Assembly (NCBI RefSeq): GCF_018130165.1
Contig: NZ_JAFCLZ010000019.1
Coordinates: 1-64,000, forward strand
Source of the DNA: Bradyrhizobium sp. JYMT SZCCT0180
GTDB taxonomy: Bacteria > Pseudomonadota > Alphaproteobacteria > Rhizobiales > Xanthobacteraceae
Length of the DNA stretch: 64,000 bases
Direction of reading: 5' to 3'
Shown here: piece by piece, positions 28,341 to 33,012 of the stretch
Numbering within the stretch: position 1 is the first letter of the stretch
Layout: each line of letters begins with the position of its first letter
Position numbers and translations under genes: made by a program
The notes under the pieces: model-generated
Told to the model about the DNA's origin: nothing
Seen by the model: only the letters and a program-made list of their open reading frames with translations
Databases searched by the model: none

Positions 28341-31805
<3,465 letters not shown>

Positions 31806-31833
31806 CAGGTCTCGCGGACTGGAATTTGGGCAC

Positions 31834-31941
31834 AAAAAAAGGGCGCGCATGCTGCGCGTCCCCTAAGCCAAGAGCGCGGGTTACCCTCGCGCGCGGGTGG
31901 TCTTTAGACCAGATTTCGCACCCGCGAAACCCCCAAAAACG
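31834..31941 (-). promoter_or_regulatory. carB leader with attenuator-like terminator
   Basis: On the minus strand GGGGACGCGC-AGCA-TGCGCGCCC followed by seven T (31834-31863) is a terminator-like hairpin only 30 bases before the carB ATG. Upstream of it are GGTCTAAAGACC (a perfect 12-base palindrome), GCGCGAGGGTAACCCGCGC, and a stem-loop CCCG-TTTTTGGGGGTTTCG-CGGG around 31928-31941. Competing pairings among the CG-rich arms are possible. This suggests attenuation of carB, perhaps by pyrimidines or arginine. Confidence 0.55.
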
Positions 31942-32176
31942 GGCCATCAACCGCGATTTTGGCTATTTTGGGCTTGCCTATGGTCAGTCCGTCTACGCTT
32001 TCGCTGCGCTCCAGCTACGCCGTACACGCTTCGTCCTGACGGTCTCAGCGTGGCTGCGCCACGCGTAGCCCCGATAGATGGAGATTGCCGAGGCCCGTCT
32101 TCGCCCTTCGGGCTTCGCCGTGGCAGCCTTCGCCACGAAGGGGCCTGCCTAGCCGAAGCGGCGGAGCCGCGAAGGC

Positions 32177-32252
32177 TGGAGGCCCGGCCTGGATTTGAAC
32201 CAGGATAAAGAACGATGCACCGTTCTCGCGTTGTCGCTTCCGCCACCGGGCC
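32177..32252 (-). tRNA. Aberrant tRNA-like gene (Cys-like acceptor end, Leu-like D-arm)
   Basis: The minus strand forms a cloverleaf of 76 bases. Acceptor GGCCCGG/CCGGGCC is perfect, T-arm CCTGG-TTCAAAT-CCAGG is perfect, the discriminator is T and CCA is encoded. U73 and an apparent GCA triplet in the loop recall tRNA-Cys. The D-arm TGGCGGAAGCGACAACGCG instead recalls tRNA-Leu, but with the GG of the D-loop missing and only three stem pairs. The anticodon loop is eight bases (GGTGCATC) on a five-pair stem. It is either a decaying tRNA, a specialised non-translational tRNA, or a mimic. The intact stems and CCA speak against random decay. Confidence 0.6.
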
Positions 32253-32310
32253 AAGGCGATCATTACCGATCACGGGCCGGTGAGCTACGTTTACCTTTTA
32301 TTAACCCTAA

Positions 32311-33012
32311 CTAGCGCACCGATGGGTGGTGGGCGATGAAGGTCATCCTCCAGGGATTGTGGCCGATATTGTCGGGGGCGCGCGAAGCGGCGAAGCCGGC
32401 CCGCGTCAGCTTGGCGATCATCTCATCTTCGCTGTAGCGCTGCAGGCCGACGCGGGTGCGCAATTGCCGGTAATCCGACAGGGCCGTAGAGGCGAGGCCG
32501 TAGAGCGCGTCCGTCAGGAAGCCGTGGGAGCTTGCGAATTTCAACAGCGCCAGCACGTCTCGCCCCATGCCGACCTCGGGCCGCAGGATATCGCCCAGCA
32601 CCAGCCGCCCGCTCGGCTTCAGCAGCCGGCGAATGATCGCGAATGCGGAATCCAGCTCTTGCTGCGTCATGTATTGCGCCACCGAGTTCATGACGACGAG
32701 ATCGATCGACTGCGCGTCCATACTCCGGAGCTCATCCAGCGAACGGACGCGGATTTTGGTGTTCGGCGCAAAGCGCGCGATCAGCCGGCCGCGCACGCCG
32801 GGGGCGGGTTCGGCGAGATAGAGTTTTGCGCAGGCGTCCGCCACCTTGGCCGCCGACAGCGCCTCGCCGCAGGCATAGTCCAGCACGACAGCGTCAGGCG
32901 ACGAGATGTAGCCGATGATGTCGCGCGCGATGATCTGGAAATGCAGGTCCCGATGCAGCTTGCTCGCATAGATCGTATGCGTGGAATCGTAATAGTCGAT
33001 CCATTCGTCCAT
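32311..33012 (-). CDS. SAM-dependent methyltransferase
   Basis: The product has 233 residues. A class I Rossmann-like methyltransferase fold is indicated by motif I VVLDYACGEALSAAKVA (about residues 45-61), then LYLAEPAPGVRGRL, the motif IDLVVMNSVAQYM and the RRLLKPSGRLVLGDIL strand-turn, typical of type-11 family enzymes. The motif I glycines are reduced (D-Y-A-C-G-E). The frame extends upstream to 33234 but the ATG at 33012 (MDEWIDYYDSTHTIYASKLH) gives a standard N-terminus. The substrate is unknown. It diverges from dps across 124 bases. Confidence 0.82.
   Translation of the reverse strand: MDEWIDYYDSTHTIYASKLHRDLHFQIIARDIIGYISSPDAVVLDYACGEALSAAKVADACAKLYLAEPAPGVRGRLIARFAPNTKIRVRSLDELRSMDAQSIDLVVMNSVAQYMTQQELDSAFAIIRRLLKPSGRLVLGDILRPEVGMGRDVLALLKFASSHGFLTDALYGLASTALSDYRQLRTRVGLQRYSEDEMIAKLTRAGFAASRAPDNIGHNPWRMTFIAHHPSVR

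What the first reader, a model, noticed from the sequence alone, without database searches (positions are those of the whole stretch)
32177..32252. tRNA-like gene with 8-base anticodon loop, shortened D-stem, U73 and encoded CCA
Acceptor and T-arm are perfect, CCA is encoded, yet the D-loop lacks the GG pair, the D-stem has three pairs and the anticodon loop has eight bases. It looks like a mixture of a Leu-like D-arm and a Cys-like acceptor end. Preserved stems suggest function, for example in non-translational aminoacyl transfer, frameshifting or regulation, rather than decay.
Basis: partly seen in the sequence, partly recalled or inferred. Interest (0 to 1): 0.66.

Follow-up and report, generated by a model that had tools for sequence, protein, structure and literature searches.

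The report
Conserved second cysteine tRNA, probably non-decoding
Soil bacteria related to Bradyrhizobium keep, besides their normal cysteine tRNA, a second cysteine-type tRNA whose acceptor end is preserved while its anticodon arm is remodelled, which suggests that it serves some purpose other than reading the genetic code.

Summary
On the minus strand at 32252..32177 lies a complete 76-nt tRNA-like gene with encoded CCA and U73. It is no decaying copy: 257 of 265 genomes of the genus carry it, and its anticodon stem shows strong compensatory change. It is a divergent paralog of tRNA-Cys; a separate normal tRNA-Cys was found in 15 of 15 genomes checked. The 'Leu-like, shortened' D-arm is simply that of the local tRNA-Cys. 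The '8-base loop' is better read as a 6-7-bp stem capped by six bases around TGCA. Related genes occur in four other families of the order; in one, the loop has become GGGAAC. Acceptor, T-arm, U73 and CCA stay nearly fixed, with U51-A63 in 39 of 40 against C51-G63 in 36 of 37 normal tRNA-Cys. The gene has its own conserved promoter region and an upstream TTAASSTTAA motif that normal tRNA-Cys genes lack (27 of 34 against 0 of 37). Best reading: a cysteine tRNA withdrawn from decoding, probably charged by the only CysRS and used off the ribosome. Conservation and selection are shown; charging and use are inferred. My paper searches found no description.

The parts
32177..32252 (-). tRNA-Cys paralog ('tRNA-Cys*'), 76 nt, transcribed right to left, encoded CCA at 32177-32179, U73 at 32180
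32246..32252 (-). acceptor stem 5' strand GGCCCGG (pairs with 32181-32187)
   Evidence: 100% of cells paired in 22 and in 40 sequences
32228..32243 (-). D-arm, 3-bp stem as in local tRNA-Cys, loop without GG
32209..32226 (-). remodelled anticodon arm: 6 bp (7 with G26.U45) and 6-nt loop GTGCAT containing GCA
   Evidence: covariation in 5 of 6 pairs, 6 of 6 in the wider set
32188..32204 (-). T-arm CCTGG-TTCAAAT-CCAGG with U51-A63
   Evidence: UA at 51-63 in 39 of 40 paralogs, CG in 36 of 37 canonical tRNA-Cys
32181..32187 (-). acceptor stem 3' strand CCGGGCC
32259..32264 (-). putative -10 box; with a pyrimidine at -1 this places the start at or near mature G1 (inferred)
   Evidence: upstream conservation in 83 distinct homologs: A at -11 in 67, T at -7 in 63, C or T at -1 in 83
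32282..32287 (-). putative -35 box
   Evidence: T at -35 in 60 of 83, G at -34 in 54, G at -33 in 60
32301..32310 (-). conserved palindromic motif TTAGGGTTAA (TTAASSTTAA type), possible regulator site
32311..33012 (-). class I SAM-dependent methyltransferase gene, syntenic neighbour; functional link not supported
   Evidence: PF08241 and PF13649; synteny and co-occurrence
28341..31850 (-). carB (carbamoyl-phosphate synthase large subunit; named by recognition of the sequence), syntenic neighbour downstream

Best explanation
A conserved second tRNA-Cys gene that has been withdrawn from ordinary decoding. It arose by duplication of tRNA-Cys in an ancestor of several families of the order, kept the acceptor/T-arm half with the cysteine identity elements (U73, G2-C71, C3-G70) and CCA, and rebuilt the anticodon arm into a longer stem with a six-base loop. 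It is transcribed from its own promoter, starting near the mature 5' end. Most likely the single CysRS charges it with cysteine, and an off-ribosome user (an aminoacyl-transferase or a sensor of cysteine supply) takes the charged RNA; the altered elbow, T-stem and anticodon arm would keep it away from EF-Tu and the ribosome. Shown: paralogy, conservation, covariation, conserved upstream elements. Inferred: expression, charging, exclusion from decoding, the user.
For: 257 of 265 genus genomes carry it, nearly all in one copy. Compensatory changes keep the anticodon stem. Acceptor, T-arm, U73 and CCA nearly fixed. Tree without anticodon arm and D-loop splits 40 paralogs from 27 canonical tRNA-Cys at 99/97. 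Canonical tRNA-Cys present separately in 15 of 15 genomes and one full CysRS in 20 of 20. Loop remodelled to 6 nt, GGGAAC in 9 of 40, GTGAAA in 1 of 40, while canonical ones are CTGCAAA or TTGCAAA in 27 of 27: decoding of Cys codons is not what is conserved. Bacterial Cys identity is U73, G2-C71, C3-G70 and GCA, and U73 alone suffices in minihelices (PMC9976931, passages). S. aureus non-proteinogenic tRNA-Gly likewise lose G18G19 and change the 51-63 pair (PMC4052509, passages). Own promoter-like elements and upstream motif; strong hairpins followed by T-runs directly downstream in one family (read by eye).
Against: No expression or charging data. No user enzyme identified. GCA is itself a CysRS determinant, and it is lost in 10 of 40 homologs, so charging there is doubtful. 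15 of 40 homologs keep GG in the D-loop, so elbow change is not universal. Three f23 homologs have a normal-sized 7-nt loop GTGCAAA that could decode. Some members have lost or degraded it, so it is dispensable.
Confidence: 0.48

Rival explanations
1. Uncharged or charge-independent regulatory RNA: a tRNA mimic that binds CysRS, EF-Tu, a processing enzyme or another protein as a decoy or sensor.
For: The anticodon is lost in 10 of 40 homologs; dedicated promoter and motif suggest regulation. B. cereus tRNAOther is a pseudo-tRNA proposed to act within a regulatory RNA (PMC3399842, abstract).
Against: U73 and encoded CCA in 40 of 40 and a nearly fixed acceptor are hard to explain without charging or 3'-end use.
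Confidence: 0.27
2. Specialised translational tRNA-Cys: a minor isoacceptor, or a frameshift or recoding tRNA with an enlarged anticodon arm.
For: GCA retained in 30 of 40 homologs and invariant in 22 of 22 variants of the first alignment. Yeast mitochondrial tRNA-Thr with an 8-nt anticodon loop does decode (PMC7609411, passage). Three f23 homologs have a 7-nt loop.
Against: The 32-38 pair covaries, closing a 6-nt loop; f35 homologs have GGGAAC; a normal tRNA-Cys is always present.
Confidence: 0.15
3. Functional partner of the upstream methyltransferase, for example as its substrate or in one pathway.
For: Directly upstream on the same strand in 14 of 17 family loci.
Against: The methyltransferase was not found in any of 13 genomes outside the family, five of which (G582, G757, G672, G650, G710) carry the tRNA paralog, nor in G283 of the family; it is present in several genomes without the paralog.
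Confidence: 0.05
4. Pseudogene, or an integration-site remnant of a mobile element.
For: Absent in 8 of 265 genus genomes, degraded in G300 and without CCA in G298.
Against: Compensatory changes and near-universal single copy; no match in 50,697 phage or 72,556 plasmid records.
Confidence: 0.03

Closest known systems
Canonical alphaproteobacterial tRNA-Cys(GCA)
   Same: GGCC/GGCC ends, TGG.GG and 3-bp D-stem, U73, CCA, GCA in most
   Different: Anticodon arm with 6-7 bp and 6-nt loop, D-loop mostly without GG, U51-A63, own promoter and motif; separate clade 99/97
Non-proteinogenic tRNA-Gly isoacceptors of Staphylococcus aureus (peptidoglycan)
   Same: Second isoacceptor beside a decoding one; G18G19 lost and 51-63 pair changed (PMC4052509, passages)
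   Different: Cys, not Gly; here the anticodon arm is remodelled; no Fem-type user known
B. cereus tRNAOther pseudo-tRNA
   Same: tRNA-like gene reported not to function in translation
   Different: tRNAOther is reported within larger transcripts beside a genomic island (PMC3399842, abstract); this gene has its own promoter-like region and is near-universal in its genus
selC* tRNA-Cys
   Same: Additional Cys-type tRNA with U73 and GCA
   Different: selC* has an 8/4 acceptor branch and, in some groups, selB*/cysS* partners (PMC7609411, passages); here 7/5 and a single CysRS

Membership tests
tRNA (Rfam RF00005) | score over gathering cut-off and cloverleaf | tested here: met
   41 bits against 29, though missed by default filters
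canonical decoding tRNA-Cys(GCA) | 7-nt anticodon loop with U33 and GCA | tested here: not met
   6-nt loop with covarying closing pair; canonical loops are CTGCAAA or TTGCAAA in 27 of 27
cysteine-accepting tRNA (CysRS substrate) | U73, G2-C71, C3-G70, GCA as listed in PMC9976931 | tested here: met
   all present in the window gene by sequence; charging itself not tested
cysteine-accepting tRNA (CysRS substrate) | aminoacylation with Cys | not testable with these tools
   needs a charging assay
selC* tRNA-Cys | 8/4 acceptor branch with bulge, second CysRS in some groups | tested here: not met
   7/5 branch; one full CysRS in 20 of 20 genomes
non-translational (off-ribosome) tRNA isoacceptor | weakened EF-Tu binding and lost G18G19 | tested here: inconclusive
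   GG absent in 25 of 40, kept in 15 of 40; U51-A63 in 39 of 40; binding not measured
pseudogene | stem-breaking drift in relatives | tested here: not met
   99.8% and 99.5% of cells paired

The most novel reading that the evidence does not exclude
An order-wide, dedicated cysteine carrier RNA: a tRNA freed from decoding (its anticodon replaced by GGGAAC in one family) that delivers cysteine, or reports its supply, to an unknown off-ribosome process under its own regulator.
Probability: 0.4. Interest if true: 0.85.

Novelty: new variant of a known kind. Interest (0 to 1): 0.68.

Why it matters
Dedicated non-translational tRNAs are known for few amino acids. A near-universal one for cysteine in nitrogen-fixing and other soil bacteria would point to an undescribed cysteine-tRNA-dependent pathway or sensor, testable in a laboratory Bradyrhizobium strain. 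It also shows a conserved RNA gene class that tRNA finders label as undetermined (32 of 40 get no isotype from ARAGORN).

Tried and rejected
Leu/Cys hybrid: rejected, the D-arm is that of the local tRNA-Cys. Pseudogene: rejected by covariation. Integration site or mobile gene: no phage or plasmid match. Methyltransferase partnership: synteny only. A second CysRS: none full-length. Genome-wide use of the upstream motif: the strict pattern GTTARSSTTAAT occurs once in the genome, at this gene, against 3 for the reversed control pattern, so no regulon could be read. Class-wide search: 21 of 337 genomes passed, the window's own among them; of the 20 others I extracted 14 loci, 13 read as canonical tRNA-Cys, one extraction (L389) failed and six were not read. 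Ambiguous and left out of the counts: f41 genes L306-L308 (7-nt loop TTGCAAC), L238 (loop CCGCAA), L253, L254, L256, and the degraded genes of G298 and G300. L306 was placed in the canonical control set. Literature: nine searches found no description of this gene; find passages in PMC5082802 and PMC4842269 did not mention it; supplements were not open. Subscription papers, including sRNA surveys of this lineage that I recall, could not be read.

Full report
What is there. The window lies in a Bradyrhizobium-type genome of 8.04 Mb; exact matches to the 5' half of the element come mostly from named Bradyrhizobium contigs. The minus-strand sequence 32252..32177 is GGCCCGG TG GCG GAAGCGACAA CGC G AGAACGGTGCATCGTTCT TTAT CCTGG TTCAAAT CCAGG CCGGGCC T CCA. 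ARAGORN reports it with an undetermined anticodon; the Rfam tRNA model accepts it only with permissive filters.

Paralog of tRNA-Cys. The genome's canonical tRNA-Cys(GCA) shares the GGCC ends, TGGCGGA, the ACGC 3' side of the 3-bp D-stem, the T-loop and U73-CCA. The supposed Leu-like D-arm and short D-stem are therefore ordinary here. A tree on 49 columns without D-loop and anticodon arm separates 40 paralogs from 27 canonical sequences at 99/97, with the caution of few columns. The 40 paralogs were all found with model R1 and aligned to it, so pair counts on A3 lean towards its structure; the first alignment A1 was made without a model.

Conservation. 257 of 265 genus genomes have a match; 245 of 251 among near-complete ones. 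Of 148 loci first compared, 146 matched. On 22 variants, 99.8% of cells are paired, and 5 of 6 anticodon-stem pairs change on both sides. On 40 wider homologs, 13 of 21 pairs change on both sides (shuffles 6.3), in 98 cells (shuffles 19.6; slid versions at most 21). The closing pair 32-38 is standard in 34 of 36 lettered cells, so the loop has six bases in most members: GTGCAA 19, GGGAAC 9, GTGCAT 6, CTGCAA 2, and one each of ATGCAT, GTGAAA, CTGCAC and ATGCAA. Four of the 40 (gap at one side of this pair) have shorter stems; three of these (f23: L304, L305, L313) show a 7-nt loop.

What stays fixed. U73 and CCA in 40 of 40; acceptor strands 96% and 90% mean majority; T-stem strands 97% and 98%; anticodon-stem strands only 63% and 55%. 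Pair 51-63 is U-A in 39 of 40 paralogs and C-G in 36 of 37 canonical tRNA-Cys (the 32-38 line of that script was off by one and is replaced). GG in the D-loop is present in 27 of 27 canonical and 15 of 40 paralogs.

Distribution. In the family search 312 of 391 genomes gave a match at 1e-6, but this includes canonical tRNA-Cys. In 40 family genomes, read locus by locus, the paralog proper (about 66 bits or more, 73-77 nt) is clear in 17, while the other best matches that I read were canonical. Outside the family, the order search gave 49 of 397 genomes at 1e-12, 17 of them in the family; the loci that I read and accepted as paralogs are 16: 11 of f35 (plus L300, near-identical to L299, not in the alignment), one of f6, three of f23 and one of f29, less L317 which was read but not aligned. 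All readable class-level loci were canonical.

Gene surroundings. Of 17 family loci, 14 have a class I methyltransferase directly upstream on the same strand and 16 have carB downstream. In other families the surroundings differ: gyrA (named by recognition) upstream in f35. The methyltransferase is found in 38 of 60 genomes and in none of the 13 outside the family, so the link is one of place. Three near-complete genus genomes (G137, G138, G178) keep the methyltransferase but have no paralog within the 800-900 bases taken at its 3' end; G298 lacks CCA and G300 has a damaged T-loop.

Promoter. In 83 distinct homologs the upstream region is conserved at -58..-49 (TTAAGGTTAA), -35..-31 and -19..-7, with C or T at -1 in 83 of 83. 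Spacing fits a sigma-70-type promoter starting at or near G1 (inference). The motif scores at least 8 of 10 in 27 of 34 paralogs and 0 of 37 control genes, about 10% in shuffles, and its form was absent from 49 other tRNA upstream regions of the genome, the array locus left out. Motif and scoring were chosen after seeing the sequences, so the f35 set (8 of 11 at 9 or more) is the fairer test.

Mechanism. See Best explanation. The identity set for bacterial CysRS comes from PMC9976931 and the S. aureus comparison from PMC4052509 (passages read). The genome has one CysRS. That U51-A63 weakens EF-Tu binding is an inference by analogy. The user of the charged RNA is unknown.

Novelty. Nine paper searches and passages of seven papers gave no description of this gene; that covers only the open library.

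Noticed in passing
own genome contig C23:257874-261426 (locus L189): A dense array of about 18 divergent tRNA genes, unlike the rest of the genome's set; probably a tRNA array of a mobile element.
   Followed up: no
window 31980-32170: GC-rich, hairpin-forming repeats between the tRNA paralog and carB, of REP type by eye.
   Followed up: no
window 31947-32273, minus strand: A 108-aa open frame that reads through the tRNA gene (YPGSNPGRA) and the repeats; likely spurious.
   Followed up: no
L306-L308 (family f41): A second tRNA-Cys-like gene with 7-nt loop TTGCAAC and GG in the D-loop; intermediate between canonical and paralog, left out of counts.
   Followed up: partly
L231 (family genus g8): Homolog with loop GTGAAA: the GCA has become GAA.
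   Followed up: partly
window 32301-32310: Palindrome TTAGGGTTAA, conserved upstream of the gene; its regulator is unknown.
   Followed up: partly
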